DNA of 64,000 nucleotides from NCBI GenBank assembly GCA_002726205.1, contig PBSL01000074.1:1-64000 (forward strand). Reading direction: 5' to 3'. The translations under genes were made by a program, and so were the position numbers. This document shows, in pieces, positions 43,409 through 64,000 of the stretch. Each line of letters starts with the position of its first letter. Position 1 is the first letter of the stretch. This DNA comes from Planctomycetaceae bacterium (GTDB lineage: Bacteria > Planctomycetota > Planctomycetia > Planctomycetales > Planctomycetaceae). Under the pieces are notes generated by a model. It did not search any database and was not told the DNA's origin. It was given only the letters and a program-made list of their open reading frames with translations.

Positions 43409-44545
43409 CTATCGCTGATAGATTGGCAGATACTGGTACTCGACGGCCAGTGCCAGTACCGACATGCAGGTGGCGTAATTGGCTCCGTGCGTTCGCTCGC
43501 TGCCGTGTTTCGCCTGCCAACTGCCGGCGGTCTCCTGCTCGGCCAGCAGGATCGGTACAAGGTGATTTCGGGTTTCGGTCCAGTAGTTTCCCCCGACCTT
43601 GAACATCCCGACACTGCAATAGTAGACGCCGTAGAAGAAGTAATGGTCGGTATATTTCAAGGGGCGTGCCAGGAGATATTCGGCGGCTCCCAGGGTCTCG
43701 TCACTTCGGTGTTTCCCGCAGATCTCCAGGGCCAGGATCCCGGTTCCCGCCCGCGTCGGTGTGGGGGCTCCTCCGGGCTGGTAGGCAAAACCTCGCTGGT
43801 TCCGCACGCTGCACCGGCGAATGTACTCGACCGCACGGTCGATGTTCTCGGCGGGGACATCCGCGCCGACGTTGCGGGCCGCTCTCAGGGCCAGTAACTG
43901 CCAGCCGCTGACACTGATGTCGCTGTCGGTGCTGGTCGGTTGGTAACGCCAGCCACCGGCATGGTGATTGGCCTTGGCGACATTTTGAGATTTGAGGATC
44001 AGTGCGATGGCCCGTTTCAGGGCCTGTCGGCAGTCGTTTGCCAGTGGTTGATCGACCATCCCGATCACCTCGGCGAGCATCAGCGAACTGATGCCGTGGC
44101 TGTACATCGGTCCATGGCTGCGGCGATGAACCAACATGTCGTCGGGACGCTGGTGATCGACGACCCAGCGAATGCCCCGCTGCAGTTGACGACCGTAGGG
44201 ACCCTCACCGGGGACATGTCCGGCGGCCATGAAGGCCATCACCGCCAGGGATGTTGTTGCTGTGGATTCCCCCAACCGGCCCACCGTCCACGCGCCGGAG
44301 GGCTGTTGCTCTCGAGCCAGGAACTCCAGACCCTTGACGATCGCCGAATCGACCTGCCGTTGTTGTTCGGAGATCTGGCCGGGACGCTGTTGCGGTTTCG
44401 TGGCCTTGGCGGGGGGAGTCGCTGGCTTGGTGGCCGGGGACTGGGCGGCGATGCTTGAGACGGAAAACGCGGTGATTGCGACCAGCAGAGCCCGGGCGAT
44501 TGATTGTAGCGGTCGAGGATGTTGCTGCGGTGCCATGATGGTCAT
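43409..44545 (-). CDS. Exported prenyltransferase/squalene-oxidase-repeat protein
   Basis: A 378-residue protein with a signal peptide (ARALLVAITAFSVSSIAAQ) and an alpha/alpha-toroid made of terpenoid-cyclase-type repeats (GLEFLAREQQPSGAWTVG; GLAMLAEVIG-like helices; GGWRYQPTSTDSDISVSGWQLLALRAAR; GTGILALEICGK). It lacks an obvious DxDD cyclase motif (TSTDSDISV is the nearest), so it is probably a non-enzymatic relative, as often seen in planctomycetes. Its ATG overlaps the stop of the preceding DUF4175-like gene as ATGA, tying it to the first Bat cassette. Confidence 0.85.
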   Translation of the reverse strand: MTIMAPQQHPRPLQSIARALLVAITAFSVSSIAAQSPATKPATPPAKATKPQQRPGQISEQQRQVDSAIVKGLEFLAREQQPSGAWTVGRLGESTATTSLAVMAFMAAGHVPGEGPYGRQLQRGIRWVVDHQRPDDMLVHRRSHGPMYSHGISSLMLAEVIGMVDQPLANDCRQALKRAIALILKSQNVAKANHHAGGWRYQPTSTDSDISVSGWQLLALRAARNVGADVPAENIDRAVEYIRRCSVRNQRGFAYQPGGAPTPTRAGTGILALEICGKHRSDETLGAAEYLLARPLKYTDHYFFYGVYYCSVGMFKVGGNYWTETRNHLVPILLAEQETAGSWQAKHGSERTHGANYATCMSVLALAVEYQYLPIYQR

Positions 44546-47500
44546 GGTGACAGGTCTCCACGACCGTCACGGGCAATTTCCTCGAAGTAGAACCGGATCA
44601 GTTTCGCATAGTCTCCGTTGGGGTCCCGCCGGGCCGCTTGCAGAATCTCGGTCTTCAGCGAACCGGGCAACCGGCCCCAGGCCCGACCGGAAAGCCGTTG
44701 CAGTTGCGCTTCCAGTCGCTTCAATTCCATGGGCACCGATGATCCGGTGCCGGTATTTCCCTTGGTGTCGCGAGACGTTGGGTCGTCCTGTCCTGGGGGT
44801 GCGACGGAGTTGTTGTCCTGGGGTTGTCCTGGTTGGAGTTTCCGGGAGGCCCGCGCGAGCGAACGGGCGGCACGCCGCAATTGGCTGGCGGTGCGGGACA
44901 GGGGCCCCTGGCCGGCATCTTGCCCGGGTTGTTTTCCCGCTTGCTGGCCGGGTGACTTTCCCTGTCCCTTCTGTTGCGACTTGCCCTTGCCGGATCCCTT
45001 CTTGCCCTTGCCGGATCCCTTCTTGCCCTGGGATTGGTTGCCGGGCCGGCGCGATGAGGCGGTCTGGCGGTCGTCGAACTTGGCTTGTGCGAGGCCTTGC
45101 CGGGCCTGTTCGAGTTGGTCCGAGGCCGAGGCCACCTGTTTGCCGACCTCACCGGGTACCGGAGTTTCGGGACGATCCTTGGGATCCCCCGCCCCCAGGG
45201 CCAGTTTGGCGGTGAGCTTGAGAGATTCGGATGCACGTTTCGCACCGCTGGCAGCGGCCGCGTGACGCGAGGCGGCGACATTCTCACGAACGCCGGTCAT
45301 CAGCTTTCGACCGGTTTGTGCCACCTGGCTGGCACGCGTGGCCTGTTGAGCGGCCTGGGGAAGATCCAGCGGAGAGCGACCAAGACGGCGGGCCGCATCG
45401 TCGAGGCCGCTGCCCAGCGCCTCGGTGGCAACGGCAATCACCCGTTGTGATTCGCCACGGGCGTCGCGACGGGCGGTTGCGGAGTTCTTGAGGGTCAGCA
45501 GACGGGCGGTTTCGGCGACCTGTTGCCCGGCCAGGGCCTCTGCTCTCCGGACCAGGGCGGGATCCGGTTGCGGTTCGGTGGTTTCGGCCAGCGTGCTGGC
45601 GGCCCGCTTGGCCTGGGCACGCGCGGAGGTCGAGGCAGTTGTGGCTGGTGTGAAGCGGCCCCCGAGAATTTGCTGGGCCGCTTCACCCGCCTGGCGAGCA
45701 TATCGTGCCGCCTCGCGGGCGGCCGGAGCCTCGGTTCCAGTCTGGCCGGCGACATCCAGCGCCTGGCGAGCGGCCTGCCGCGCCAGTTCCTGCTGGCGGC
45801 CCAGCACGGTGGCCGATGGATCGACGGCCGGACGGTCGATCACCGGTGGCTTGCTGTTCGGCAAGGCGGCTTCTTCATTTAACGCCTGGCCGAGCTCTTC
45901 CTGGGGCCGGGCGAGTTCCAGCGCACGTCGGGCCAGTTCGCGGAGCAGGGCCAGCTGGTCCTGTCGGGCGGCTTCGACCACTTCGGGACGCCGCTCGAGC
46001 AGGTTGTCGAGATCTCCGGCGAGCTCTTTTTGTCGAGCAGAGAGCTCCTGCTTTCGCTGCGTGAAATCCTCGCGTCGCTGCGCCCTGGTATCGGCCGTCT
46101 CGCCGGGAGGGCTGTCGCCGGCCATTCGCGCCAGAGTGTCCACGTCGTCGGCCAGTCGTTTCGTCTGGCGCGCCAGCCGGTCCAGTTGCATCAGCTCGCG
46201 TTCGAGTGCCGCCAGCTTGTCGAACGCGGTGCCCAGCCGTGTCAATGATGTCACCACCTGTGACAGGTCTTCCCCGGACTGGGCCAGGCGAGTTGCCTTG
46301 TCGGCCAGGGGGGCCTCGAGCGCCGGTTCCAGTCGACGGGTTGCCGTCGGCAGGATCGTGCGGGCGACGTCGCGGGCCAGCGGGGCGATGCTGCGAAAGA
46401 GCGGATGAGCGCCCAGCTGTCGTGCGATGCCGTCAACACGGCCGGCCAGTTCCCGCTGCCCGGCCCCGGCCTTGCGGATGGCGTCGTTGGCCGGAAACGG
46501 TGTTTGGTTCTTCAACGCCGCGAGGACCTGTTGCCGGAGTTCGACCAGGGTCGATCGGCCGGCAACCGCATCGCGCCGCGCCTGCTCGATCTGGGCCTTC
46601 AGTTTTGCCTGCCGTTGAGCAATGTCGGCCGCACCCGGTGGCCGGGCCGCCCGGTCGATCAGCAGGGTCCGTGGTGTTGACCAGGTTTCATTGGCAACCG
46701 GTGATGGACGATTGTCGACGGCTCGAACACGATAGGTCAGCCGGTCGCCGTGCTTGAGTTGGAGTTTCGAGAGGTCGAGCGTGAAATGTTCGACCACGTG
46801 ACGTCCTCCAAGTCGATTCTGATCGACGGCCTGGACGTCCTGAGTCCGGGGGTTAATCTGCAGGTGCAATTCCAGGGCGGCCAGACCGAAGTCATCAGTG
46901 GCCTCGGCCCGGACGGCGAGTACGTCGCCGGGGCGGACCGCGCGGGGGCGGTCGTGGCCGTCGAGTCTGAGGATCGGGGCCGCGTCGCCGGTGACTACCA
47001 GTTGCCGGTACGTGTCGTCATCGCGGGTGAGCCCGTCCCGATCGGTCAGTGCGACCAGCAGTGGACCACCCTCGGAGGCTGCGAAGTCGACATTGGCTGA
47101 TCGGCCGTCATCGGCAAGTAACGCCGGCCAACTCCGCTCGCCATCGACGGCTCCCAGCCTCAGGCGAGCCGTCTTCAACGGCTTGTTGAACTGCATCCGC
47201 CAGTGAAGCCGACTGCCGCCCAGGACGCTCACCTCACCGACGACGGCATCGGTTGTGCGTGGCTTGCGACCGGTGTAGCCGGGTGGAGTGATTTCCAGAA
47301 CCAGGCCTCGCAGGGCAGGAGGGTCAACGACCCTGACCTCGTGTCGTCGCGACCGGTTGACACCGCTGGCCACTTCGAAATGAAATCCCTCCAGGACTTC
47401 CGGCCAGGTCGTCGTGAAGGCGGCGCCATCGGCTGTTCGCTCCAGCAACCTCCTGTCCACGGCCCCGGATCGTGTGGTCCAGTGGCACCAGAGTTCTTCG

Positions 47501-48213
47501 GGCAGGACACGGGCAGCTGTTGGTTTGCTGTGGGTGGGGGAGGTCACCTGCACCTGGATTCGCACGTCGCTTCCCCGGGCGACCACGCGGTCGCCATCCT
47601 CGACGGTGATCCGGTACAGCACGGCCCGTTCGAGATTCGACCACGGCAGGAAAAACCGTGTCAGGAATAACGAGTAACCGGACCCCGGCATTGCGAGTGG
47701 CCCCAGCAGCAGGCTGACGGCGAGCAGAGCCCAGCCCAGCATCACGCCGGCCGTGCGGAGTTGGATCACTCCGCCCATGTTGATCGACCGGGTCGCGATC
47801 TCGGTTTCCTCCACGAGCAGCGCACACAACGGAGCGGCACTCGGCTGGTCGGAACCACTTTCGAGCAACTCGACGCTGCTGGTCAGTCGCTCCTCGAGTT
47901 CCGGATGGACCCGTTCGACCAGTGCGGCCAATTCGGCCGGAGAAATCCGGGCCAGGATACGGCCAACGACCAGGCGACAAAACGCCCACACCGTGACACC
48001 GACGACCAGCACCAGCAACAACATCCGCAAGGCCAACGGCAGTGGACACAGCAGGTCGACTACCAGGCCCAAACCCAGCACCGCGGTGGCGACGAGGCCG
48101 AACAGGCCGCTGCCGTGCAATACCGTCAGCCAACGCCAGCGGCGGCGCAGTTGCTGCAGTCCGGTGGCCAGGCCCGGTGGCAGTTGCTGTGCTGGTGTGA
48201 AACTCTCGGACAT
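44542..48213 (-). CDS. DUF4175-like membrane protein with long coiled coil (Bat cassette 1)
   Basis: About 1,223 residues. Two N-terminal transmembrane helices are followed by a cytoplasm/membrane-proximal segment (ALVERVHPELEERLTSSVELLE), a third helix, Ig-like beta domains (LVLEITPPGYTGRKPRT; VRAEATDDFGLAALELHLQINP), then some 600 residues of Ala/Arg/Gln-rich coiled coil and a Lys/Gly repeat tract (GKKGSGKGKKGSGKGK). The C-terminus contains a short folded domain (LKTEILQAARRDPNGDYAKLIRFYFEEIA). I recall planctomycete relatives labelled DUF4175. ATG at 48213 fits better; ATG at 48291 has an AGGAAGG site and overlaps the upstream gene, so it remains possible. It is paralogous to the gene at 62198. 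Confidence 0.8.
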   Translation of the reverse strand: MSESFTPAQQLPPGLATGLQQLRRRWRWLTVLHGSGLFGLVATAVLGLGLVVDLLCPLPLALRMLLLVLVVGVTVWAFCRLVVGRILARISPAELAALVERVHPELEERLTSSVELLESGSDQPSAAPLCALLVEETEIATRSINMGGVIQLRTAGVMLGWALLAVSLLLGPLAMPGSGYSLFLTRFFLPWSNLERAVLYRITVEDGDRVVARGSDVRIQVQVTSPTHSKPTAARVLPEELWCHWTTRSGAVDRRLLERTADGAAFTTTWPEVLEGFHFEVASGVNRSRRHEVRVVDPPALRGLVLEITPPGYTGRKPRTTDAVVGEVSVLGGSRLHWRMQFNKPLKTARLRLGAVDGERSWPALLADDGRSANVDFAASEGGPLLVALTDRDGLTRDDDTYRQLVVTGDAAPILRLDGHDRPRAVRPGDVLAVRAEATDDFGLAALELHLQINPRTQDVQAVDQNRLGGRHVVEHFTLDLSKLQLKHGDRLTYRVRAVDNRPSPVANETWSTPRTLLIDRAARPPGAADIAQRQAKLKAQIEQARRDAVAGRSTLVELRQQVLAALKNQTPFPANDAIRKAGAGQRELAGRVDGIARQLGAHPLFRSIAPLARDVARTILPTATRRLEPALEAPLADKATRLAQSGEDLSQVVTSLTRLGTAFDKLAALERELMQLDRLARQTKRLADDVDTLARMAGDSPPGETADTRAQRREDFTQRKQELSARQKELAGDLDNLLERRPEVVEAARQDQLALLRELARRALELARPQEELGQALNEEAALPNSKPPVIDRPAVDPSATVLGRQQELARQAARQALDVAGQTGTEAPAAREAARYARQAGEAAQQILGGRFTPATTASTSARAQAKRAASTLAETTEPQPDPALVRRAEALAGQQVAETARLLTLKNSATARRDARGESQRVIAVATEALGSGLDDAARRLGRSPLDLPQAAQQATRASQVAQTGRKLMTGVRENVAASRHAAAASGAKRASESLKLTAKLALGAGDPKDRPETPVPGEVGKQVASASDQLEQARQGLAQAKFDDRQTASSRRPGNQSQGKKGSGKGKKGSGKGKSQQKGQGKSPGQQAGKQPGQDAGQGPLSRTASQLRRAARSLARASRKLQPGQPQDNNSVAPPGQDDPTSRDTKGNTGTGSSVPMELKRLEAQLQRLSGRAWGRLPGSLKTEILQAARRDPNGDYAKLIRFYFEEIARDGRGDLSP

Positions 48214-48277
48214 GCGGTTTTTAGCGAGTGGAGGGGAACGGTTTGGTGGAGTGTAGCATTTCCGGCCATCGACGGGC

Positions 48278-50809
48278 CTAGGGAAGTCCATGCACCTTCC
48301 TGATGACCCATTCGGCCGTCATCAGCAGGAAGAAGACCAGCAGTATCGACCAGTGATTCCACAGCGCGACGTCGTCGGTGTGCGTCGTGCGACGCGTGGC
48401 TCGTTGCAGGAGTCCGGCCAGGGTGTCAAGCCGGTCGATCGGGATGAGTCGGCCGTTCGAAGCGGCGGCCAGGTCAGCGAGCTGTTCGGGGTCGGCCGAG
48501 AGGTTGGTGAGTTCGCCGGAGGTCGGTGGATGAACAAAGACGTTGGCCGTGACGTCATCGGTATCGATCTCGGACGTCGAGACCCGGAGCCGAACCTGGT
48601 AGTCGCCCGACGGCAGCGCGGTCGTTCGTCCTCGCCACAGCAGTGGCCGGTTATCGATGGCCACCAGCGGGACAACTGCCAGCGGCTGATCGTTGTGGCC
48701 GGCCCCGGCCGAGTGAAATTCGGCGTGGGCTGTCAAGTTCTCGAACTTCTCGATCACGTTGCGGCGCCATCTCGCGGTGACCACGACCGGTTCTCCCTCG
48801 GTGACCTCGGCTGACTCCAATCCCAATCGGACCGATGCATTGCTGCTGACCGCCTTGTTTCGGGCCGCCCAGCGTGCCAACTGACCCCAGAACCGGTGGT
48901 GGTAGGTGTCGCCGATGCGATGTCGCCATCGCCAGGTACTGTCGATGCCCAGCCAGAGGACCTGGCCGAGTCCATAGAACTGGTGCACGAACAGGGCCCG
49001 GCGACCGTCGATCGCCGGGTGATTCGTGTCCGGGTTGCCCCGCGGTTGTGGCCGGGCCAGAACGGTGCTGCCGGGACGCGGTGTCCCGGCCAATCCCCAG
49101 AGATGTCCGGGGAGCGCATCCCAGATTCGACGATTCTCGGACGGATCGAGATGAAACTGCAGGATCGACTCGCGTTGGCCTTCGGGGGTCAACGCGATGC
49201 CGAAACCGCGTTCGGTAGGAGAAGTGCGGGCGTCGTCATCCTGGAATTCCAGCGGGACCAGGCCGGTGACCGGCAGGAGTCGCTCCAGGATGTCCAGGCC
49301 GTAGGATGACGGCAGGTCTTTCTTTCCCGCCACGAGCACGAGTGTCCCACCAGTCTCACCGACGAACGACTCGAGCAGCTGCCAGGCCGTTTTTCCCAGC
49401 GAGCGGGGACTCACATCTCCCACGATGACCAGATCGGTTTCGGCAAGCACCGACCGCTCGACCGCATCTTTGCCGTCGGGTACCTCCAGCCGGTTGGCGA
49501 AGAATGGTTCTTTCTGCAAGCCCAGGAACGGCTGCTCAAACACGACCTGTTCCACCTCGGCGCGTTCGTCACGCGACAGAGCATTGTCAATGAACCGGAA
49601 CTCCCAGCGGGCTTCTCCATCGACGAGCATGACCTTCGCCACGTCGTCGACGACGTTGACCAACAGTTCCTTCTGGTTGTTGTCGTCACGGAGTTCTTCC
49701 GGGTGTGGTTCGGCCCGGACGACCAGTTTCCGCCGTCCCAGTCGGGCGGCAGGCCACTGGAACGAGACGGTCTGGCTGTCGGTAGTTGGTGTGATCGTCT
49801 GTACGATTGCATCGTCGGGGGCATCGGCGGGGAAGAGACGGATCGCGACCGGGCGATTGCGGAAGCCGCCGGTCCTGACGGTTGCCGTCAGTCGCAGCGT
49901 GTCTTGCTGGAAGACGGTACGCGGGGCGTCGACGGCCACGATCGCCAGGTCCCGCGGCAGACGGGGTGAACCAATGAGCACGGGGAAAATCGGAATCGAC
50001 TGTGACCCCAGTCGCGATGCCGCCGCCAGTGGATCACTGTTCTCGGTCTGCCGGCCGTCGCTGAGCAGGACGATTCCGGCGACGGGGGTCTCGTCGCCGT
50101 GAGAGACCGGTCCCAGCGCCGCGGCCAGGTCGGTGCGGTCGATCGTCAGTGATTCCGAAGGTGGCCGGGTCAGTGCCTGGGCGGTTACCGTTTCAGCCGT
50201 TCCGCCGAAGACCCGGAACTCGAGCTCACCGACGGCTCCCAGGGAGTTCAACAACGGGGAGTTTTCTCCAAGGATCCGCCCGACGATCTCCTGCCGTGAC
50301 AGCTTGCTGACAGCCTGGAACACGTCATCGAGGTTTCGCCGGCGAATCTCGGCCAGGCGGCGGCGTTGGGACGGGTCGATGGCTTCCCCGGGGTCAACCC
50401 ATCGCGGCTCCTTCCCGGCATCGAAGTCGGAAGACCAGCGGTCGAGCCGCTCGTTGATTCGGTCGTTGCCGATCAGGCCCAGGCCCCGTGCCCAGCGCAG
50501 CTTTTCCGCTCCGGTCGCCTGCGCGTCGATGATCGCCATGCTCTCGGAAATATCGACGGCCACCAGGACCCGGCCGCGGTGCAACCGGCCACGGGACCAG
50601 CTCAGCACCGGTTCGGCCAAGGCCAGCCCCAGCAGGATCACGACCGACAGCCTCAGGCCCAGCAGCCAGCGGCCCACACGAACCGGTACCAGTTGCCGTT
50701 CGAACTGCAGCAGTCGGACGATGAGCCCGGCAGCGATGAGCACGGCCAATCCGCCCAGAGCGAGCCAGCCAGGCGAATCGAGGGCCTGGAAGAGCAGGTG
50801 ACGGCTCAT
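48278..50809 (-). CDS. VWA/glutamine-amidotransferase-like membrane protein (Bat cassette 1)
   Basis: An 843-residue protein with two N-terminal helices (GLAVLIAAGLIVRLL and LGLRLSVVILLGLALA), a von Willebrand A domain with a complete MIDAS core D86-x-S88-x-S90 (VAVDISESM), Ig-like domains, a GATase1-like region (VMLVDGEARWEFRFIDNAL and DLVIVGDVSPRSLG), and a C-terminal helix (SILLVFFLLMTAEWVIRK). This architecture matches the large VWA proteins encoded with BatA and MoxR in planctomycetes. It overlaps batA by ATGA. It is paralogous to the gene at 59606. Confidence 0.87.
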   Translation of the reverse strand: MSRHLLFQALDSPGWLALGGLAVLIAAGLIVRLLQFERQLVPVRVGRWLLGLRLSVVILLGLALAEPVLSWSRGRLHRGRVLVAVDISESMAIIDAQATGAEKLRWARGLGLIGNDRINERLDRWSSDFDAGKEPRWVDPGEAIDPSQRRRLAEIRRRNLDDVFQAVSKLSRQEIVGRILGENSPLLNSLGAVGELEFRVFGGTAETVTAQALTRPPSESLTIDRTDLAAALGPVSHGDETPVAGIVLLSDGRQTENSDPLAAASRLGSQSIPIFPVLIGSPRLPRDLAIVAVDAPRTVFQQDTLRLTATVRTGGFRNRPVAIRLFPADAPDDAIVQTITPTTDSQTVSFQWPAARLGRRKLVVRAEPHPEELRDDNNQKELLVNVVDDVAKVMLVDGEARWEFRFIDNALSRDERAEVEQVVFEQPFLGLQKEPFFANRLEVPDGKDAVERSVLAETDLVIVGDVSPRSLGKTAWQLLESFVGETGGTLVLVAGKKDLPSSYGLDILERLLPVTGLVPLEFQDDDARTSPTERGFGIALTPEGQRESILQFHLDPSENRRIWDALPGHLWGLAGTPRPGSTVLARPQPRGNPDTNHPAIDGRRALFVHQFYGLGQVLWLGIDSTWRWRHRIGDTYHHRFWGQLARWAARNKAVSSNASVRLGLESAEVTEGEPVVVTARWRRNVIEKFENLTAHAEFHSAGAGHNDQPLAVVPLVAIDNRPLLWRGRTTALPSGDYQVRLRVSTSEIDTDDVTANVFVHPPTSGELTNLSADPEQLADLAAASNGRLIPIDRLDTLAGLLQRATRRTTHTDDVALWNHWSILLVFFLLMTAEWVIRKVHGLP

Positions 50810-53022
50810 GAATCACCGGTCTCCTGCTGGTACCCGCCACGTACCATCCTCCGGGTCAATGTGACCTCGGCCAGCAGCAGTCCCAGGAACAGCACCAGTA
50901 CAAGATGCCAGAGTTCCGTGTGGGGCGCCCCGCGGTTGATCGCTTCCCGCAGATCCTGCTGGTCGGCCACGAATCGTAACCGATCACTTCCCGCCAGCCG
51001 GCCACGGGTCGTTTCATCCAGCCGTTGCAGCGACGATTCGTTGCGGTCGCTGTTGACGACGAAATGCTCGGGAGATTGCCCGGACCGCCCCTTCGAGCGG
51101 CGGGGGATCATCGAATAGTGACCGGGGAACCCGGTATCGGCCAGGCGAACCTGTTGACCCTGGCGGTTGTCGCCTCGCTCGACGGCGAAGCGTTGTCCGG
51201 TTGGTCCAATAAACACGTGCTCGGAGATATCGAAGTCGGCCGGGACCGTCATCAACAGGGGATCGCCGGTCGTGATGTTGCGGGTCGATTGGCCACCGGC
51301 AAGCCGAAACAGGAGCTCGTGCAGAAACGAGACGTAGTCAGGTCGGGCCGGCAGGGTGTTCCAGTCGGCGTCCAACGACGAGGCCCAGATTGCCGTACGT
51401 CCCTGTTGGAGACGCCCGGTCACCAGCAACGGATCGCCGCTGGTCAGGCGAGCGGCCACCTGGGCCGGCTCGGGAGATTCGCCGGGGGCCAATGACCACC
51501 AGCGGGTGAATCGGGCCTCGGTGAATCCTCCTTGCCGTTCACCTCGAAAACGCGTCAGCCAGGACCGGTTGAGGCTCTCGTCGGCAGGATGAACGGCGGC
51601 TGCAGTGGAGTCCTCGGGGTCGAGCGGATCTCCACCCTGGTCGAGGATCCGTGCGGGAAGGATACCCGAGTCGTCAGACCACGTGTTCCAGGCCGCCGCG
51701 TTGGTCCGATCGCCGAGTGTGATCAGCAGTCCCCCTCCATTCGAGACGAACTCGATCAACGACGCTCGGTGTTCGGGTTCGGGCCGAGTGAGATTTGCCA
51801 GCACGACAACCTGGGCGGATTCAAGATCGGTCGGCTTCAATCGGTCCCAGGTGACGACACGGCCGTCGATCCAGGGACGTTCGTTGGCGGTCGCCGACAA
51901 CGCAGCGTGGGCAAAAAAAGTCTCGCTGCGAATCACGTCAGGGTGCGGAGCTCCATCGACAAGCAGAACCGGCAGGGCTTCGACCGAGACCACCGCCGCC
52001 TCGCTGCGGTCATCGCCCGGCAGGGGGTCTTCGTCGAGAACGACGGCGAGGCGATGGGAGCCGGGGGCCTGCAGCCGATGCTCGAATTCGACCGTGGTTT
52101 TCCCGGAAGGTGGAACACGGACCGAGAGGGCTCGATTCGACAGTCGTTGTCCATCGACTTCCAACACCACCCGCCGTGTAGCCGTTTCCGCGTTGCCGTG
52201 GCCGTGGATCGTCGTCCGCAGTGTCACTGCCAGACCCGAGGGGACGAGTTCACGGGAGAGTTCGAGTTGGTCGAGGTGGTAATGGGCGACGGCGGTGTCG
52301 CGAGGTTCTCCCGGAGTCGCCACCAGGATCCGTGGCCGCGTGGCATCCGGAAAACCGTCGAGCTGATCATCGAGAGTCTCCCAGGCCACCGGGTCGTCGC
52401 TTCGCCAGCCAATGGCCTGGCCGTCGGTCAGGATGATGATCTCCCGACGAAGATTGCTGGTCTCGCGCAACAACCCGATCGCGTGATGGATCGCCGCGGG
52501 CAAGTCGGCGGTGCCAGCCGGCGGTGCCAACCGACTCAGCGAGGCGCGGGCGACGTCGTGGTTGACCGTCGGCGGGTCGATGACTCCTCGCACCTGGTCC
52601 CGGGCCTCGAGCACTGCAACACGGTCGCCGGGACCAAGCTCTTCGAGATAGCGATGGGCCCACTGGATGGCCGCTGCGTGAGGCGTCTGACGCCCGTCTC
52701 GCCAGCCCATGCTGTAGGAACCGTCGATCACCAGCACCACATCACGACGTGTCTTCTTGAGCAGGCTGGCCAGCCAGCCCCCGGAACTCGCCGGCCGACA
52801 CAGGGCCACGACCAGCAGGGCGACCAGGGCCATGCGGAGTACGATCAACAGCAATTCCTCGAAGCGCACTTTGCGCCGGGCGGTCTTTTCAAGTTCGAGA
52901 AACTGCATCGCCGCCCACGGGACCACCTCGTGCCGCTTTCGTGAAAGCAGGTGAGTCAGGACTGGCAGTGAGAGCCCCGCGAGACCCCACAGCATCGGCG
53001 TGTTCAGCAATTCCCAGCCCAT
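50806..53022 (-). CDS. BatA/VWA membrane protein (Bat cassette 1)
   Basis: A 738-residue protein beginning with the BatA N-terminal domain (NTPMLWGLAGLSLPVLTHLLSRKRHEVVPWAAM), two transmembrane helices, a VWA domain with MIDAS core D100-x-S102-x-S104 (VIDGSYSM), a GATase1-like domain (QVVVLANLTRPEPEHRASL; SNGGGLLITLGDRTN) and a C-terminal helix. Bat proteins are linked to MoxR AAA ATPases and oxidative or envelope stress, but the mechanism is poorly known. It heads the minus-strand cassette. TATGAT (53036-53031) lies eight bases before the ATG, suggesting a leaderless message. Confidence 0.88.
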   Translation of the reverse strand: MGWELLNTPMLWGLAGLSLPVLTHLLSRKRHEVVPWAAMQFLELEKTARRKVRFEELLLIVLRMALVALLVVALCRPASSGGWLASLLKKTRRDVVLVIDGSYSMGWRDGRQTPHAAAIQWAHRYLEELGPGDRVAVLEARDQVRGVIDPPTVNHDVARASLSRLAPPAGTADLPAAIHHAIGLLRETSNLRREIIILTDGQAIGWRSDDPVAWETLDDQLDGFPDATRPRILVATPGEPRDTAVAHYHLDQLELSRELVPSGLAVTLRTTIHGHGNAETATRRVVLEVDGQRLSNRALSVRVPPSGKTTVEFEHRLQAPGSHRLAVVLDEDPLPGDDRSEAAVVSVEALPVLLVDGAPHPDVIRSETFFAHAALSATANERPWIDGRVVTWDRLKPTDLESAQVVVLANLTRPEPEHRASLIEFVSNGGGLLITLGDRTNAAAWNTWSDDSGILPARILDQGGDPLDPEDSTAAAVHPADESLNRSWLTRFRGERQGGFTEARFTRWWSLAPGESPEPAQVAARLTSGDPLLVTGRLQQGRTAIWASSLDADWNTLPARPDYVSFLHELLFRLAGGQSTRNITTGDPLLMTVPADFDISEHVFIGPTGQRFAVERGDNRQGQQVRLADTGFPGHYSMIPRRSKGRSGQSPEHFVVNSDRNESSLQRLDETTRGRLAGSDRLRFVADQQDLREAINRGAPHTELWHLVLVLFLGLLLAEVTLTRRMVRGGYQQETGDS

Positions 53023-53030
53023 GACCGACG

Positions 53031-53036
53031 ATCATA
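53031..53036 (-). promoter_or_regulatory. -10 element placed for a leaderless batA transcript
   Basis: TATGAT (5 of 6) on the minus strand ends eight bases before the batA ATG at 53022. No ribosome-binding site and no clear -35 are visible. Confidence 0.35.
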
Positions 53037-53074
53037 CGCCCTCGAACGTCCGACGCGTAGCGACCCGGCGGCCG

Positions 53075-53103
53075 TTGATCGTGAGAGCGGTCACACGTAT
53101 GGT
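53075..53103 (+). promoter_or_regulatory. Candidate sigma-70 promoter of the isomerase/pseudosulfatase operon
   Basis: TTGATC (53075-53080), a 17-base spacer and TATGGT (53098-53103), each 4 of 6 to consensus, 94 bases before the GTG at 53197. It sits in the divergent gap with batA of cassette 1. Confidence 0.4.
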
Positions 53104-53196
53104 GGTTTCCACGCCGTCCGGGTGATCGCGGCTGCTCGACTTCTCGCGCGGGTGGCGAACGGGCCAAGTCAACGGGTTGGTTTCCAGGGACAACAC

Positions 53197-55166: not shown

Positions 55167-55330
55167 CACGGCCCGTGTGGCGGGCCGCAGGGAAGTGCTC
55201 TTTCCTGTCGGATTCTGTCGAAAACCCGATGTCGAATCGCTACGATGAGTCGGCCGGTCCGGATGGGGCGCGTGAAACCCGCCCGTGGGATCGGCAATCC
55301 TCTTTGACTCACCAGGAAGGCGAGCAGACC

Positions 55331-56452
<1,122 letters not shown>

Positions 56453-57335
56453 GGAGATCTCGCGGATCGCCCGGCTCGAGGTCCGTGCCCGGCACATCGT
56501 CGAGGGGTTTCTCTCCGGGTTGCATCGCAGTCCCTATCTCGGCCAATCGGTCGAATTCGTTCAGCACCGGGAATACGTGCCCGGTGATGATGTGCGTCGC
56601 ATCGACTGGAAGGTGTGGTCGAAGACCGACAAGTACTTCATCAAGCAGTACGAGGAGGACACCAACCTGCGGACGACGTTGCTGGTGGATTGCAGCGAGT
56701 CGATGCGGTTCGGTACCGGGCCGTTGTCGAAGTACGAATACGCCTGCACGGTTGCCGCGGCGATGGCGTTTCTGTTGTTGCGACAGCAGGACTCGGTCGG
56801 GTTGACCGTCTTCGACGAATCGATCCGGGAACGGGTCAGGTTCGGCAGTCGTCCCAATCACCTGGTGGCATTGCTGGCCGCGCTGGATTCGCCCGAGCCT
56901 GCCAGCAAGACCGACATGTTCGGGATCCTCGAAGAAGTCGCTGCCACACAGAACCGGCGAGGCATCGTCGTGATCGTCTCGGACCTCTTCGTCCCTCGCG
57001 AGGGGCTGTTTCGCGGCCTGAGGATGCTGAGACATCGTGGCCACGACGTGTTGATTTTTCACGTGATGGATGACGAGGAACTGGAGTTCAATTTCAGCGG
57101 GACGACGCGATTCGAGGGGCTGGAGGAAGCCGGGGACCTGGTCTGCGATCCCCGCAGTCTCCGCGACGGATACCTCGAGGCGGTCGAATCGTTCCGCAGC
57201 GAGCTGAAAAGAAAGTGCGCGGCTGAACTGATCGATTTTCAGACAATCCGCACCAGTGAGCATCTCGACGCCGCACTGGCCCATTATCTCAATCACCGCA
57301 TCGGCATGCGGCAATCGGTCCGGAGCTGACACGCG

Positions 57336-59609
57336 ATGGGTTCGTGGTTTCTGAACGCGGGATTTCTTGGCTGGGGGGCTGCCGCCCTGGTCTCGGCCCC
57401 GGTGATCATTCACCTGATCAACCGCTACCGCTTCCGGCGGGTCGAGTTTGCGGCGATGGAGTTCTTGCTGGCCAGCCAACAGCGTAATCGCCGCCGCGTC
57501 CTGATCGAACAGCTGTTGTTGCTGTTGCTGAGAATGCTGCTGGTGATCGGGCTGATCGCCCTGATCGCTCGGCTGGTGCTGGACCCGTCGACGCTGTCGA
57601 TGTTGCAGGGCGCCGAGGTCTACCACGTGGTCCTGATCGATGACAGCGCGTCGATGCAGGACCGCTGGGGCGAGACGAACGCGTTTGACGAGGGGAAGTC
57701 GGTCATCGGGAAGCTGGTGGCGGCAAGCCTGGCCGAGGGGGGCGGGCAACGATTGACGTTGCTGAGACTGTCTCGGACAGCGCAACCGGACTACATCGAC
57801 CAGCCAATCGACCGGGCTTTCCAGGGCGAACTCGACGCCCGCCTGCAGTCGATTTCCTGCTCGCATCAGCGACTGGAACTCGCCGACGGCCTGGATGCCG
57901 CCGCCCAACTGCTCGCCAAGCAGCCCACCGGTGTGAAGCATCTGCACGTCGTGTCGGATTTCCGTCACAATGACTGGCAGGATCCCAGGGCCCTGGTCGA
58001 ATTCCTGGAACGCCTTGATGGAGACGGTGTTACCGTCAACCTGGTCCGCACCGTTCCCGCACGGCACGAGAATCTCGCGGTGACCGGCCTGCGGGGCGAA
58101 CTCCAGGTGGCCAGCGCGAGGGTTCCGGTGCGATTGACCGCGGTCGTGGCCAATCGAGGAGAGACACTTGTCGGACAGGTCAATCTCGCGGTCTTCGTCG
58201 ATGGCGAACGCCTGCCCCTGGCGGTGACCGTCGAACGACTCGAAGCCGGGCAGGAGGTCGAGCAGTCTTTCGAGGTGACCTTCGACACCCCGGGCAAGCA
58301 TCGTATCGAGGTGGTCCTGCCCGGTGATTCATTGGCCGCCGACGACCGTTGGCATCTTGCCGTCGACGTGGCCGCTGCCAACCGGGTGTTGATCATCGAG
58401 GGCGATCCGGCTGCCGAGGAGGGACTGTTCCCGACACTGGCTCTGGCCGCCAACCCGCAGGCCTCCGGGTACCAGACCGTCGTTGCCTCGGTGGACTACC
58501 TCTATCGACAGAATATCGATGGTTTCCAGAGCATCCTGGTACTCAACGTCCCGGAACTTCCACCGGATGCCATCGAAGCACTGGAAACGTTCGTGCAAGG
58601 CGGCGGGGGGCTGGTGTGGTATGTCGGCGATGCCATCAATCCCGCCTCCTACAACACCGCCCTGTATGCCGAGGGCAACGGGTTGTTCCCGGTCGTACTG
58701 GCCGACGCGCCGCGTGAGCTTCCCCGCGACGAGACCGCCGCACCTGGTCCCGACCTGGTGCTGGCAGAACACGCCATGTTGGCCGGACTGCAGGGGCAGG
58801 ACAATCCCGAGATCGAGGCGACGCGGATCTTCCGGTACTTTCCGGTCGACGACGACTGGGAACGCGACGACCGGAAACGCGATGACGACGTGAAGACAAT
58901 TGCCGCGTTAAGGACCCGGGAACCACTACTGTTGGAACACCGACTCGGCAGCGGACGCATCATCACCTGTCTGACGAGTTGCGGAACCGGCTGGACCAAT
59001 TTCCCACAGTACCGCAGCTTCGTGCCGTTCCATTTTGAACTGCAGAAGTACATTTCCCGGGCCGATCGCGTGTTGCCCAGTCGCGAGGCGGGTGCGGCGA
59101 TTCACCTCGAACTCGATCCCGCCCAGTTCGGCCCCTCGATCCGGATTGATCCGCCGGAAAATTCCGGGCAGGTGACCACCGAGTTGCAGGTCCAGCCGGT
59201 TTCGGTCCCCGTTGACACGGCGGCCCCGGCCGATCAAAAGGACGAATCGAAGGCCCCGCTGCAGCGGGTGGTTGATTACGAACGGACCGATATGCCGGGA
59301 ATCTACCGTGTCAAGCTGGTTGATGCTGCCGACGTGAACGTCGAGCGATGGTACGCCTACAACACCGGCAGCGACGAGGGACGCCTGGAACTGGCCGACA
59401 GTGCCGCAATCCGGCAGGCCCTGGGACCGGCGTTGTCCGAGAAAGTGAGGATCCAGGAGGCGGGATCGACCGAGTGGCTGGCAGGACGGGAGTCGGATCG
59501 GGATGTGCGGGAATGGATTCTCGTTCTGCTCGTGCTCGTGCTCCTGGCCGAACAACTGCTGGCCTACCGCTTGAGCTACCATTCCACCGCTCAGGGGGCC
59601 CGCAGATGA
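57336..59609 (+). CDS. BatA/VWA membrane protein (Bat cassette 2)
   Basis: A 757-residue paralogue of the gene at 50806. The BatA N-terminal domain (FLGWGAAALVSAPVIIHLINRYRFRRVEFAAMEFLL, seen in parts) is followed by two helices, a VWA domain with D102-x-S104-x-S106 (LIDDSASM), an Ig-like domain (VPVRLTAVVANRGETLVGQVN), a GATase1-like region (VLIIEGDPAAEEGLF; GGGGLVWYVGD) and a C-terminal helix (WILVLLVLVLLAEQLLAYRL). It is coupled to the next gene by ATGA. Confidence 0.9.
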   Translation: MGSWFLNAGFLGWGAAALVSAPVIIHLINRYRFRRVEFAAMEFLLASQQRNRRRVLIEQLLLLLLRMLLVIGLIALIARLVLDPSTLSMLQGAEVYHVVLIDDSASMQDRWGETNAFDEGKSVIGKLVAASLAEGGGQRLTLLRLSRTAQPDYIDQPIDRAFQGELDARLQSISCSHQRLELADGLDAAAQLLAKQPTGVKHLHVVSDFRHNDWQDPRALVEFLERLDGDGVTVNLVRTVPARHENLAVTGLRGELQVASARVPVRLTAVVANRGETLVGQVNLAVFVDGERLPLAVTVERLEAGQEVEQSFEVTFDTPGKHRIEVVLPGDSLAADDRWHLAVDVAAANRVLIIEGDPAAEEGLFPTLALAANPQASGYQTVVASVDYLYRQNIDGFQSILVLNVPELPPDAIEALETFVQGGGGLVWYVGDAINPASYNTALYAEGNGLFPVVLADAPRELPRDETAAPGPDLVLAEHAMLAGLQGQDNPEIEATRIFRYFPVDDDWERDDRKRDDDVKTIAALRTREPLLLEHRLGSGRIITCLTSCGTGWTNFPQYRSFVPFHFELQKYISRADRVLPSREAGAAIHLELDPAQFGPSIRIDPPENSGQVTTELQVQPVSVPVDTAAPADQKDESKAPLQRVVDYERTDMPGIYRVKLVDAADVNVERWYAYNTGSDEGRLELADSAAIRQALGPALSEKVRIQEAGSTEWLAGRESDRDVREWILVLLVLVLLAEQLLAYRLSYHSTAQGARR

Positions 59610-62098
59610 TTGGTCCGCTGTTGGCCGCCGAGCAGATTGTCCGGGAAATCGAGTGGAGCCTGCCCGAGTCTCCCCTGGCATGGATCGCGATGGTGATCGG
59701 AGTCATGGCGCTGGTCGTGTTCGTCGTCGTCTGCTACCGGCGGGATACCAGTGACAGGTCACGCTGGTGGACGGCCTGGCTGTTGCTGTTGCGATTGGGG
59801 GTCGTCGCGGGCTTGTTGCTTGTCCTGGTCAACCCTCGCCAGCGGGTTCGCCTGAGGACCTTCCGGCCGTCCCGGGTGATCCTGCTTGTCGACAGTTCTT
59901 TGTCGATGAGTTTTCCGGAAACTCGACCCGGTTCCGGTTCCGACGGCGAGCGGTCCCGCGCGATGGCGTTGAGAGAATTGTTGGCTGAGTCGTCATTGAT
60001 CGAGCGATTGACGCGAGACCACCAGGTCCGTGTCTACACGTTTGATGCCGGGCTCAAGGAAGACCCCGTCTTTGATTTCCCCAGCCGTGATCCTCGAGGT
60101 CGCGGTGAGCAGGCAGTCGCCGGTCTTGACGCGGCGGCGGGTGGGACCGCGGACAACGAGAACGGGTTGAATCTGCCCGGTGTCGAGGAGTGGGATCGGG
60201 CGATCCGGCCGTGGTCGGTGGGCGGGGATGCCAACGTCGTGACGGGAGGGTTGGAAACCCGATTGGGAGAAGCCCTGTTGGCGGTCCTGCAGCGGGAAGG
60301 GGGCGAGGGATTGGCGGGAGTTGCCGTGATGACCGACGGGGCCAGCAATGCAGGGACCGATCCGGCACCGGCAACCGAACTGGCGGCCGATCGGAAAGTC
60401 CGGCTGTTTGCCGTTGGTGTGGGCAGTCTGGAACTGCCCGACAACATCCAGTTGATCAATGTCCAGGCCCCGACGGATGTTCACGTCGGCGATGCCTACG
60501 GCTTCAGTGTGTTCGTCAAGGGGCAGGGGGCCGGGGTCCTGGACAAGGACATCCAGGTCGAATTGCTCCGCAAGCCGGAGTCGGCCGAGGGAGAGCCCGA
60601 CGAAAAGGTCGACGTGCAGACCGTGCGGTTGCCTGACGACTCGGGGCCGATCGAAGTGAAGTTCGAATTGACTCCGGATACGGCCGGACGATTCGAGTTC
60701 CTTGTTCGGGCGGTTTCACCCGAAGCGGTCAGTGAACTCAGCGACGACGACAACCGGCGACGGCGGTTGGTCAACGTGACCGAACGCAAGCTGAAAGTGT
60801 TGCTGCTGGCGGGGGGGCCGATGCGGGATTATCGCTTCGTACGGAACATGCTGTTCCGTCACCCGGGTATCGAAGTCGACGTGCTGCTGCAGTCGGCCGA
60901 TCCCGGCGATGCCATCAGCCAGGAGGCGGATCACCTGCTCCAGGAATTTCCGGAAACCCGCGAGGATTTGTTCACCTACGATGTGATTGTGGGCTTCGAT
61001 CCCAACTGGGCAGCGATCGCCGAACCTCGCCGACAATTGCTCTCCGAATGGGTTTTCAAGCAGGCCGGCGGCCTGGTGGTCGTGGCCGGGGATGTCTACA
61101 CGCCGGAACTGGCCGCGGCTGAAAACCAGCTCGATGACATTCGCACGCTGTATCCCGTGGTGTTGGAGCCGGTGTCGCTGGAGGTCGATCTTACCCGAAA
61201 ATCCGACCAGGCCTGGCCGGTTGAGTTTTCCGACGACGGCAGCGGCGCCGCCTTTCTGCAGCTCTCCGACGACGCCGAGGATCCCCTGGAAGTCTGGGGG
61301 GAGTTCCCCGGTGTCTACCGCTGCTATCCGACATCCGGGCCCAAGGACGGGGCACTGGTCTACGCCCGGTTCTCCGACCCTCGCAGCGATCATCCCGTGC
61401 TGATGGCCTCGCAGTTCTTCGGTGGCGGACGTGTGTTGTACGTGGGATCTCCGGAGTTGTGGCGGCTGCGATCGCTGGAAGAGGAAGTTTTCGATCGGTT
61501 CTGGATCAAGGCGATCCGCGAGATGGGGCAGGCGAGGTTGAAGCGAGGTACCAACCGTGGCACGTTGTTGCTGGACCGTACCGAGTACCTGCTTGGCCAG
61601 ACGATCGCCGTGCGGGCACACCTGCTCGATGCCCAGTTCCAGGATCTGACCAACGAAACCGTCCCGATCGAACTCTTCGATCCCGACGGGCGGCAACTGG
61701 GGTTGCGAGAACTGAACCGACAACCCAATCGGCCCGGTCAATTCGTCGGCAGTTTCCGCGCCAGTCGGCCGGGCACGTTCCGATTGGCGTTGCCGATTCC
61801 TCCGGAGGGTGACGAGCGGCTGACCGGACGGATCGACATCATACTTCCGGACCTCGAGTCGCTCGATCCTCGGCAGAACCAGCCTTTGCTGACCGGGCTG
61901 GTGAGAAGTACCGGGGGCGAGTACCTGCGGCTGGCCGACGCGGAGACGTTGCCCGAGAAACTGCCGAACCAGGGGTCCGAACTCCTGGTTGATGAAGGCC
62001 GGCCGGCGCCATTGTGGGATCGCCAGTGGGTGCTGTACCTCCTGGTCGGCCTGCTGTGTTTTGAATGGGTTACCCGCAAGCTGCTGAAACTCGCCTGA
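59606..62098 (+). CDS. VWA/glutamine-amidotransferase-like membrane protein (Bat cassette 2)
   Basis: An 830-residue paralogue of the gene at 48278 with the same order: two N-terminal helices, VWA domain with D96-x-S98-x-S100 (LLVDSSLSM), Ig-like domains (DVHVGDAYGFSVFVKG), GATase1-like region (KVLLLAGGPMRDYRFVRNMLFRH; GGLVVVAGDVYTPE) and a C-terminal helix (VLYLLVGLLCFEWVTRKLL). ATG at 59606 overlaps the preceding stop; the longer open frame upstream lies inside the previous gene. MIDAS residues are intact, so both paralogues look functional. Confidence 0.9.
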   Translation: MIGPLLAAEQIVREIEWSLPESPLAWIAMVIGVMALVVFVVVCYRRDTSDRSRWWTAWLLLLRLGVVAGLLLVLVNPRQRVRLRTFRPSRVILLVDSSLSMSFPETRPGSGSDGERSRAMALRELLAESSLIERLTRDHQVRVYTFDAGLKEDPVFDFPSRDPRGRGEQAVAGLDAAAGGTADNENGLNLPGVEEWDRAIRPWSVGGDANVVTGGLETRLGEALLAVLQREGGEGLAGVAVMTDGASNAGTDPAPATELAADRKVRLFAVGVGSLELPDNIQLINVQAPTDVHVGDAYGFSVFVKGQGAGVLDKDIQVELLRKPESAEGEPDEKVDVQTVRLPDDSGPIEVKFELTPDTAGRFEFLVRAVSPEAVSELSDDDNRRRRLVNVTERKLKVLLLAGGPMRDYRFVRNMLFRHPGIEVDVLLQSADPGDAISQEADHLLQEFPETREDLFTYDVIVGFDPNWAAIAEPRRQLLSEWVFKQAGGLVVVAGDVYTPELAAAENQLDDIRTLYPVVLEPVSLEVDLTRKSDQAWPVEFSDDGSGAAFLQLSDDAEDPLEVWGEFPGVYRCYPTSGPKDGALVYARFSDPRSDHPVLMASQFFGGGRVLYVGSPELWRLRSLEEEVFDRFWIKAIREMGQARLKRGTNRGTLLLDRTEYLLGQTIAVRAHLLDAQFQDLTNETVPIELFDPDGRQLGLRELNRQPNRPGQFVGSFRASRPGTFRLALPIPPEGDERLTGRIDIILPDLESLDPRQNQPLLTGLVRSTGGEYLRLADAETLPEKLPNQGSELLVDEGRPAPLWDRQWVLYLLVGLLCFEWVTRKLLKLA

Positions 62099-62197
62099 TA
62101 AGACGATCGAGGAGTCTGCTGATACCATGACAGTTCAGAGCCACGGAGCGGTCCGGTGGAAACGCGTCGATCCGGATCCGTGGGAGAGACAACGCCG

Positions 62198-64000
62198 ATG
62201 AACAGTACAGGATCACCACTGTCGGGAAACCCGTCGGTGACAGTCCCGGTTTCCGAGGAACTGGCCGCCGTTCTGGCGCGGTTGAGGCGTCGGATCCGGC
62301 TGTACGTGGCCATCGAGGGAACTGCCCTGTTGCTGGTGCTGCTGGCCGTGCTGTTCTGGGCCAGCCTCGGGATTGACTGGGCCTGGTTTCGGCTCAATCG
62401 CCTGGAACTGCCCGTCTGGTTTCGCGTTCTGTTCGACGTGAGTGTGGCCAGTGTCGCCACGGTGGCCGCGGTCACCTGGATCGGTCTTCGCTGGCTGCGG
62501 CGATTCCGGGCTCGCGCGCTGGCGCTGGTGCTGGAACGACGGTTTCCCGAACTTGATGATCGGCTGATTACCGCGGTTGAAATCGCTGACGTTGACCGCG
62601 GTGGGTACACGCCACTGGGACAGGCGATGATCAATCGCACGTTGCGGGACGTGGTCGAGGCCAGTCGTCGGATCGAGGTCGACGATGTCTTCCAGAAACG
62701 CCCCCTGCTTCGCGCCGTGGCGCTGGCCGTCGGGCTGTTGGTATCGATCGGCGGGTTGGCCATGGCCGATTCGAGCATCATCTCCCGCTGGGCCGATGGC
62801 TACCTGTCGCTGAAAGAATCCTACTGGCCGCGGGAATACGGGCTGTTTGTGACCGTTGTTCGCGGTCCCGGTCACTCCGATGCCGAGTTCGACGTCGACG
62901 GGGTCTATCGACATCCACGTGGCGAGGACCTGGTATTGGCGATCGAGGTCAGGCCGGATCCGTCGCGGAAGGAAGTCAAACCGCTTGATCGGGTCGAAGT
63001 CACGTTTCGGCAGGCCGGCGGATCGGGGCGGGCCGTGTGTGCCAAGACCGACTTGCGGCAATTCCGTCACACCCGTGCCGCATTGCTCGAAGATCTTCTT
63101 TTCTGGGTCAGCGGGGGTGATTACGTCAACCGTCGCCCTTACCAGATCAGGGTCGTCGATCCACCGACGGTCGAGAAGATCGTTCTCAACTGCCGGTACC
63201 CCGAATACACCGGGCTCGAACCGGTTCAACAAGAGGTCCAGGGCATCCAGGTCGAATTGCCGCTGGAGACCGATGTTCTCCTGCAGGCTCGCACTAACAA
63301 GTCGTTCACGGGGATGCGGGTCGAGTTCGACCAGTTCCGACTGGTGCTCGTTGCCGGCAGCGACGGTTCACCGACAGCCTGGTTCGAACAGGAAACGTCC
63401 GAAGGGCAGGCGATCAGGAAACGGGCGATCGATCCGGCCCTGCTGCTGGGGACATCCCTGGAACTGCCGTCCCGGATTTTCCGGTTGCCCGTAAAGCTGA
63501 CGACTTCCGCTGCCAGGGGATTGGACGAGATCTTCGGCGACGAGAACGGAAACACCGAACCATTGTCCGGGCCGATCCCATTGCCGGCCGATGTGCTGTT
63601 GAGATTTTCGGTCCATGATACCGATGACATCACCAGTCGCGATCCAGCCCGATTGACGATCAACGGGATCGTTGACCAGCCACCCGTGATCGAAACCACA
63701 CTCCAGGGCATTGGTATCGAGGTGACCCGGATCGCCCGGATCCCGATCGCCGGATTGATCCGGGACGACTACGGCATCGACAATGCGCATTTCGAGTACC
63801 AGCTGGTTGCCGCCACGACCCGGGTCGATGCATTGAAGGGTCCGTGGTTGAAACGGTCTCTCTCGCGACCACCGCACGACCGGCCTCGCGAGTTTTCCCT
63901 GGCCACCGCCGCTGATGACGTCCCGCGAGATGACGCGCTCAAGATCCCCGAAAACCAACAGGCCGCCTGGTTCGATCTGCGACAACTCAACCCCGAACCC
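62198..64000 (+). CDS. DUF4175-like membrane protein, C-terminus beyond window (Bat cassette 2)
   Basis: The first 601 residues are present, with the frame open to the right edge. ATG at 62198 follows GGGAGAG. Layout matches the gene at 44542: two N-terminal helices (ALLLVLLAVLFWASLGI and VASVATVAAVTWIGL), a segment ALVLERRFPELDDRLITAVEIAD equivalent to ALVERVHPELEERLTSSVELLE, a third helix, then Ig-like domains (KIVLNCRYPEYTGLEP parallels LVLEITPPGYTGRKP; AGLIRDDYGIDNAHFEYQL parallels AEATDDFGLAALELHL). A long coiled coil is expected beyond the edge. Confidence 0.85.
   Translation, partial: MNSTGSPLSGNPSVTVPVSEELAAVLARLRRRIRLYVAIEGTALLLVLLAVLFWASLGIDWAWFRLNRLELPVWFRVLFDVSVASVATVAAVTWIGLRWLRRFRARALALVLERRFPELDDRLITAVEIADVDRGGYTPLGQAMINRTLRDVVEASRRIEVDDVFQKRPLLRAVALAVGLLVSIGGLAMADSSIISRWADGYLSLKESYWPREYGLFVTVVRGPGHSDAEFDVDGVYRHPRGEDLVLAIEVRPDPSRKEVKPLDRVEVTFRQAGGSGRAVCAKTDLRQFRHTRAALLEDLLFWVSGGDYVNRRPYQIRVVDPPTVEKIVLNCRYPEYTGLEPVQQEVQGIQVELPLETDVLLQARTNKSFTGMRVEFDQFRLVLVAGSDGSPTAWFEQETSEGQAIRKRAIDPALLLGTSLELPSRIFRLPVKLTTSAARGLDEIFGDENGNTEPLSGPIPLPADVLLRFSVHDTDDITSRDPARLTINGIVDQPPVIETTLQGIGIEVTRIARIPIAGLIRDDYGIDNAHFEYQLVAATTRVDALKGPWLKRSLSRPPHDRPREFSLATAADDVPRDDALKIPENQQAAWFDLRQLNPEP

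What the first reader, a model, noticed from the sequence alone, without database searches (positions are those of the whole stretch)
44542..64000. Two paralogous Bat-type cassettes arranged head to head
Minus-strand genes 53022 to 44542 (BatA - VWA/GATase-like - DUF4175-like) and plus-strand genes 57336 to 64000 have the same order, domain layout and transmembrane pattern. All four VWA proteins and DUF58 keep the DxSxS metal site. Only the plus copy has MoxR and DUF58. The divergent core holds an isomerase and an inactive sulfatase-like gene. This suggests an inverted duplication followed by specialisation, with one MoxR possibly serving two membrane VWA complexes.
Basis: partly seen in the sequence, partly recalled or inferred. 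Interest (0 to 1): 0.75.

Follow-up and report, generated by a model that had tools for sequence, protein, structure and literature searches.

The report
Two ancient MoxR systems, one scattered
Two old, related membrane-protein gene sets sit back to back here, and the one that seems to lack its ATP-driven chaperone has its own chaperone genes elsewhere in the genome; across 121 relatives five of its genes are nearly always kept or lost together even though they usually lie far apart.

Summary
The minus cassette (BatA, VWA protein, DUF4175-like, plus a squalene-cyclase-like gene) and the plus cassette (isomerase, pseudo-sulfatase, MoxR, DUF58, BatA, VWA protein, DUF4175-like) are paralogous at 26-30% identity. 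The proposed history fails. The two BatA clades each span several planctomycete families, so the duplication predates the family and is not a local inverted copy. The head-to-head layout is an old linkage, kept in the sister genus and one other genus, rearranged or broken elsewhere. One MoxR serving both complexes is unlikely: in other families minus-type cassettes carry their own MoxR-DUF58, and this genome holds their orthologues apart (MoxR at contig C16, DUF58 at contig C2). In 121 family genomes at least 90% complete, five minus-type genes (BatA, VWA protein, MoxR, DUF58, cyclase-like) are all present in 85, all absent in 22, partial in 14; at 97% or more the counts are 64, 13 and 2. This holds although the genes are mostly unlinked; losses recur about ten times independently. 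Best reading: two complete MoxR/VWA envelope systems, one operonic and nearly universal, the other scattered but kept or lost as a unit. Function is inferred, not shown.

The parts
43409..44545 (-). SQCY: squalene-cyclase/prenyltransferase-like alpha/alpha-toroid protein with an N-terminal hydrophobic segment; fourth gene of the minus unit
   Evidence: Pfam SQHop_cyclase_C 6e-09; orthologues next to the minus cassette in Gimesia, G017 and outgroup G076; shares the all-or-none profile
44542..48291 (-). Minus-type DUF4175-like membrane and coiled-coil protein; ATG at 48213 is an alternative start
   Evidence: no Pfam hit itself; 2 of 8 orthologues hit PF13779, best 4e-08
48278..50809 (-). Minus-type VWA protein (VWAG-): two N-terminal TM helices, VWA with DxSxS, beta-sandwich domains, GATase-like region, C-terminal TM
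   Evidence: fold search finds VWA and CARDB structures
50806..53022 (-). Minus-type BatA: BatA double-TM anchor, VWA, CARDB, GATase-like domain without catalytic cysteine, C-terminal TM
   Evidence: Pfam BatA 1.4e-12 and VWA_2 5.5e-16; model pLDDT 79.6; tree
53023..53121 (.). Divergent intergenic region between the minus unit and the plus unit
   Evidence: 99 bp from the BatA start to the isomerase ORF; an inner GTG of the isomerase is at 53197
53122..54039 (+). ISOM: sugar-phosphate isomerase/epimerase-like TIM barrel (AP_endonuc_2)
   Evidence: Pfam 3.7e-17; also divergent from the minus BatA in G017 and Gimesia
54036..55166 (+). SULF: pseudo-sulfatase; metal and catalytic motifs degenerate, also in relatives
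   Evidence: Pfam Sulfatase 7e-11; alignment of 8 members; starts inside the isomerase stop
55163..56452 (+). Plus-type MoxR AAA+ ATPase
   Evidence: AAA_3 match; Walker A GVPGLAKT, Walker B ADEINR; tree
56418..57329 (+). Plus-type DUF58 protein (cytosolic, VWA-like, DxSxS)
   Evidence: Pfam DUF58 5.7e-51; tree
57336..59609 (+). Plus-type BatA
   Evidence: Pfam BatA 1.1e-12, CARDB 2.4e-07; tree
59606..62098 (+). Plus-type VWA protein (VWAG+), ATG start overlapping the BatA stop
62198..64000 (+). Plus-type DUF4175-like protein, running past the window; its ORF is closed before the contig end (64987)

Best explanation
These are two separate, anciently diverged MoxR/DUF58/BatA/VWA systems. The plus system is one operon. 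The minus system keeps its membrane part here (BatA, VWA protein, DUF4175-like, cyclase-like), while its own MoxR and DUF58 are encoded at two other places in the genome. Likely mechanism: a cytosolic MoxR hexamer with a DUF58 VWA adaptor uses ATP to act on a membrane VWA complex whose VWA, CARDB and GATase-like domains face the periplasm. Each MoxR-DUF58 pair serves its own membrane partners, probably in assembly or upkeep of the cell envelope. Shown by computation: paralogy, age of the split, separate orthologous MoxR and DUF58, linked gain and loss. Inferred: topology, physical complexes, partner specificity, envelope role.
For: Trees: BatA, DUF58, MoxR (own C16 MoxR with the outgroup minus-type MoxRs, support 94/98). 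Outgroup minus-type BatA genes have MoxR-DUF58 directly upstream (L078, L079, L082). A clear score gap separates the true orthologues of MoxR-m (483 bits or more; one contig-end fragment accepted at 454 bits and 76% identity), DUF58-m and the cyclase-like gene from paralogues. Five-gene profile: 85 all, 22 none, 14 partial of 121 genomes; 64, 13 and 2 at 97% completeness or more. Nine to ten independent tree contrasts, none in the opposite direction, sign test p about 0.002-0.004. In nine complete genomes from nine genera MoxR-m is 45 kb to 3 Mb from the minus BatA. In G029, DUF58-m, a DnaA-type gene, BatA- and a cysteine desulfurase cluster together; in this genome MoxR-m sits beside the desulfurase and a DnaA-type gene, a trace of former linkage.
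Against: No physical interaction, expression or phenotype data. Co-loss could reflect a shared pathway rather than one complex. Seven of 98 genomes (at least 90% complete) with the minus BatA lack a detected MoxR-m, six of them drafts at 90-93% and one at 99% (G026). Deep relations among paralogous cassettes are unresolved: holding the plus and minus BatA clades together as one group is not rejected (p-AU 0.559). Orthology cut-offs and the presence table were read from the search output by eye.
Confidence: 0.72

Rival explanations
1. Inverted local duplication: the minus cassette arose here by inverted copying of the plus cassette, lost MoxR-DUF58 and now borrows the plus MoxR.
For: Same gene order, domain layout and head-to-head placement.
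Against: Each cassette type forms its own clade spanning several families and both occur separately in most of the family; cognate MoxR and DUF58 exist elsewhere in the genome.
Confidence: 0.03
2. Shared chaperone: the plus MoxR also serves the minus membrane complex, with MoxR-m doing something else or acting redundantly.
For: The plus MoxR is nearly universal and adjacent here; some draft genomes show the minus membrane genes without a detected MoxR-m.
Against: MoxR-m is gained and lost with the minus genes while the plus cassette stays; outgroups pair minus genes with their own MoxR-DUF58.
Confidence: 0.15
3. Shared lifestyle only: the five genes are lost together because the same niche makes them dispensable, without forming one machine.
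For: Some genomes lacking all five are small (for example G104, 4.7 Mb) and no interaction data exist.
Against: All-or-none pattern in about ten independent losses, also in large complete genomes such as G001 and G125; in outgroups the genes are one contiguous cassette.
Confidence: 0.15

Closest known systems
MoxR AAA+/VWA pairs: NorQ-NorD, RavA-ViaA, CbbQ-CbbO
   Same: MoxR-type AAA+ with intact Walker motifs and VWA partners with DxSxS; a MIDAS-dependent adaptor role is shown for NorD (PMC9976466).
   Different: Two extra membrane VWA proteins whose VWA domains are predicted to face the periplasm, a DUF4175-like and a cyclase-like protein; target unknown.
Bacteroides/Riemerella Bat operon (MoxR-DUF58-BatA...), stress resistance (PMC11834572)
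   Same: MoxR, DUF58, BatA double-TM anchor and VWA proteins in the same order on the plus side.
   Different: No BatC/D/E-type gene seen among the cassette proteins; much larger BatA with CARDB and GATase-like domains; minus system lacks the operon form.
Rhizobium leguminosarum RL3499-RL3502 operon, cell morphology and envelope defects (Vanderlinde 2011, known here only as a reference cited in PMC5118466)
   Same: From memory: MoxR, DUF58, double-TM DUF4159 protein and a VWA/GATase-like protein in one operon.
   Different: Not compared by sequence here; the paper itself was not available.

Membership tests
MoxR AAA+ ATPases | AAA_3 domain with Walker A and B | tested here: met
   AAA_3 above cut-off for the plus MoxR and MoxR-m; GVPGLAKT and ADEINR in both
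MoxR AAA+ ATPases | VWA partner encoded next to it | tested here: met
   met for the plus MoxR; MoxR-m stands apart from its VWA partners in this genome
BatA family (double-TM anchor plus VWA) | PF07584/TIGR02226 N-terminus and VWA with MIDAS | tested here: met
   both BatA proteins over cut-off for the anchor; DxSxS and the later Asp conserved; the MIDAS Thr is not conserved in the plus-type BatA
Bacteroides-type Bat operon | BatC (TPR) / BatD / BatE genes in the operon | tested here: not met
   no TPR or BatD match among the Pfam-scanned cassette proteins
DUF4175 | PF13779 match | tested here: inconclusive
   2 of 8 minus-type orthologues, not P0003 itself; 0 of 9 plus-type
Type 1 glutamine amidotransferase | catalytic cysteine | tested here: not met
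   minus BatA has one cysteine, in a TM helix; the minus VWA protein has none
Sulfatase | C/S-x-P-x-R motif and metal-binding Asp residues | tested here: not met
   motif and metal ligands degenerate in all 8 members aligned
MoxR/VWA chaperone system | ATP-dependent action on a target complex | not testable with these tools
   needs biochemistry

The most novel reading that the evidence does not exclude
A complete second MoxR/DUF58/BatA/VWA/cyclase-like machine has been taken apart into unlinked genes across Planctomycetaceae yet is gained and lost as a unit, with its own AAA+ motor and adaptor kept specific in trans beside a sister system that stayed an operon.
Probability: 0.6. Interest if true: 0.65.

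Novelty: new variant of a known kind. Interest (0 to 1): 0.5.

Why it matters
MoxR partners are normally assigned by gene neighbourhood. Here the neighbourhood points to the wrong MoxR, and phylogenetic profiles plus trees point to one far away. It gives a natural pair of paralogous MoxR systems in one cell for testing partner specificity, a clear case of an operon scattered while its function appears to stay tied together, and a defined gene list for a planctomycete envelope system of unknown role.

Tried and rejected
Inverted duplication: rejected by the BatA tree. One MoxR for both: made unlikely by MoxR-m and DUF58-m. Claim that the plus and minus BatA clades are non-sister: not upheld, the AU test does not reject their union. 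Layout unique to this genome: rejected, it is in g76 and g72. Pfam for the plus DUF4175-like protein gave nothing usable. Profile search of solved structures with the minus VWA protein gave only weak VWA hits; fold searches confirmed VWA and CARDB folds but no functional target. Literature searches found no paper on these cassettes in planctomycetes; the Rhizobium operon paper was not held. No tRNA or Rfam RNA in the window.

Full report
What is there. The window is one end of contig C75 (64,987 bases) of a Planctomycetaceae genome of 4.86 Mb. On the minus strand lie BatA (50806-53022), a VWA/GATase-like protein (48278-50809), a DUF4175-like protein (44542-48291) and a squalene-cyclase-like protein (43409-44545), overlapping by a few bases at each junction. 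On the plus strand lie an isomerase-like protein, a pseudo-sulfatase, MoxR, DUF58, BatA, a VWA/GATase-like protein and a DUF4175-like protein, also tightly packed. The paralogue pairs are 26-30% identical with E-values from 1e-11 to 2e-34, far beyond chance.

Domain checks. BatA anchors and VWA domains are confirmed by Pfam and NCBIfam. The model of the minus BatA (mean pLDDT 79.6) and of the minus VWA protein (84.8) match VWA and CARDB structures. The GATase-like match of the minus BatA is below Pfam's cut-off and neither minus protein has a usable cysteine. DUF4175 is supported only through two minus-type orthologues. The sulfatase-like protein has lost the catalytic and metal motifs, as have its relatives, so it is a conserved pseudoenzyme.

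Age of the two cassettes. In 150 genomes of the family, a plus-type VWA protein is found in 142 and a minus-type one in 114 by identity. In the BatA tree (77 rows) plus-type proteins of families f1, f3, f4 and f5 form one clade (support 100) and minus-type proteins of f1, f2 and f3 another (99). The split therefore predates the family. Whether the two clades are each other's closest relatives among all BatA paralogues is open: the AU test does not reject it (p 0.559). This genome has eight well-matched MoxR genes and further BatA cassettes at C16 and C58, to which the minus BatA scores higher than to its neighbour.

The head-to-head layout. It is shared by three genomes of the sister genus g76 with nearly identical spacing, and by genus g72, where the isomerase was not detected. 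In genus g4 the cassettes lie in tandem 7.4 kb apart with the plus DUF4175-like gene stranded upstream, as a single inversion would produce. In Gimesia the isomerase and pseudo-sulfatase still lie next to the minus cassette, and in the Gimesia-like genus g38 the plus cassette is about 42 kb away. In seven complete genomes of other genera the two are more than 160 kb apart, six of them about 1 Mb or more. I infer an old linkage that has been broken repeatedly; this is an inference from a handful of lineages.

The missing MoxR and DUF58. In outgroup genomes L078, L079 and L082 the minus-type BatA follows its own MoxR and DUF58. A solitary MoxR in this genome, C16:88446-89585, groups with those MoxRs (94/98), and a solitary DUF58, C2:12108-13010, groups with those DUF58 proteins and with solitary DUF58 genes of G029 and G024 (98/92). 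Orthologues are separated from paralogues by a clear gap: MoxR-m from 483 bits up, with one contig-end fragment (G129, 454 bits, 76% identity) also accepted, against paralogues at 458 bits and below with 64% identity or less; DUF58-m at 48% identity or more; cyclase-like gene at 47% or more.

All or none. Scoring presence of the minus BatA, minus VWA protein, MoxR-m, DUF58-m and cyclase-like gene in 121 genomes at least 90% complete gives all five in 85, none in 22, partial in 14; at 97% completeness or more, 64, 13 and 2. With independent genes about 0.05 genomes lacking all five would be expected. On a tree of the plus-cassette proteins the losses recur about ten times; nine to ten independent pairs go the same way and none the other way (sign test p 0.002-0.004). 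In complete genomes the genes are mostly hundreds of kilobases apart; MoxR-m is 45 kb to 3 Mb from the minus BatA in all nine examined. The presence table was typed in from search output, so single entries could be wrong; the pattern does not hinge on any one.

Traces of former linkage. In G029, DUF58-m, a DnaA-type gene, the minus BatA and a cysteine desulfurase lie within 7 kb. In this genome MoxR-m is followed by an isopropylmalate/isocitrate dehydrogenase, the cysteine desulfurase, a DnaA-type gene and dnaN; MoxR-m and the desulfurase are neighbours in G037, G039 and G084 as well.

How it likely works. MoxR proteins remodel targets with ATP through a VWA adaptor, as shown for NorQ-NorD (PMC9976466). 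By hydropathy and the positive-inside pattern the BatA and VWA proteins expose a short basic loop and tail to the cytosol and place the VWA, CARDB and GATase-like domains in the periplasm. I propose that each cytosolic MoxR-DUF58 pair drives its own membrane VWA complex, acting in envelope assembly or upkeep. The envelope role rests on analogy with Bat operons (PMC11834572) and, from memory and a cited title only, the Rhizobium RL3499-RL3502 operon.

Verdict. Novelty lies in the scattered yet co-inherited second system.

Noticed in passing
G000:C16:88446-94368 (L088 6447-12369): MoxR-m lies beside an isopropylmalate/isocitrate dehydrogenase, a cysteine desulfurase, a DnaA-type gene, dnaN and a gyrB-like gene; MoxR-m and the desulfurase are also neighbours in G037, G039 and G084.
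   Followed up: partly
window 54036-55166; L049, L051, L069, L031, L030, L141, L036: A family of pseudo-sulfatases without catalytic or metal residues is kept next to either cassette across the family.
   Followed up: partly
G000:C58:37000-74999 (L086, L048): Two further MoxR-DUF58-BatA cassettes lie in tandem, with a cyclase-like gene between them.
   Followed up: no
L009, L017, L018 and others: In many family genomes the minus BatA stands alone, in L009 directly behind a gene that looks like a DUF1501 gene.
   Followed up: no
L177, L179, L182: A third cassette type with its own MoxR-DUF58 forms a tight clade in G022, G017 and G039.
   Followed up: no
window 57336-59609: The plus-type BatA keeps DxSxS and the later Asp but not a conserved MIDAS Thr, so its metal site may be partly altered.
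   Followed up: partly
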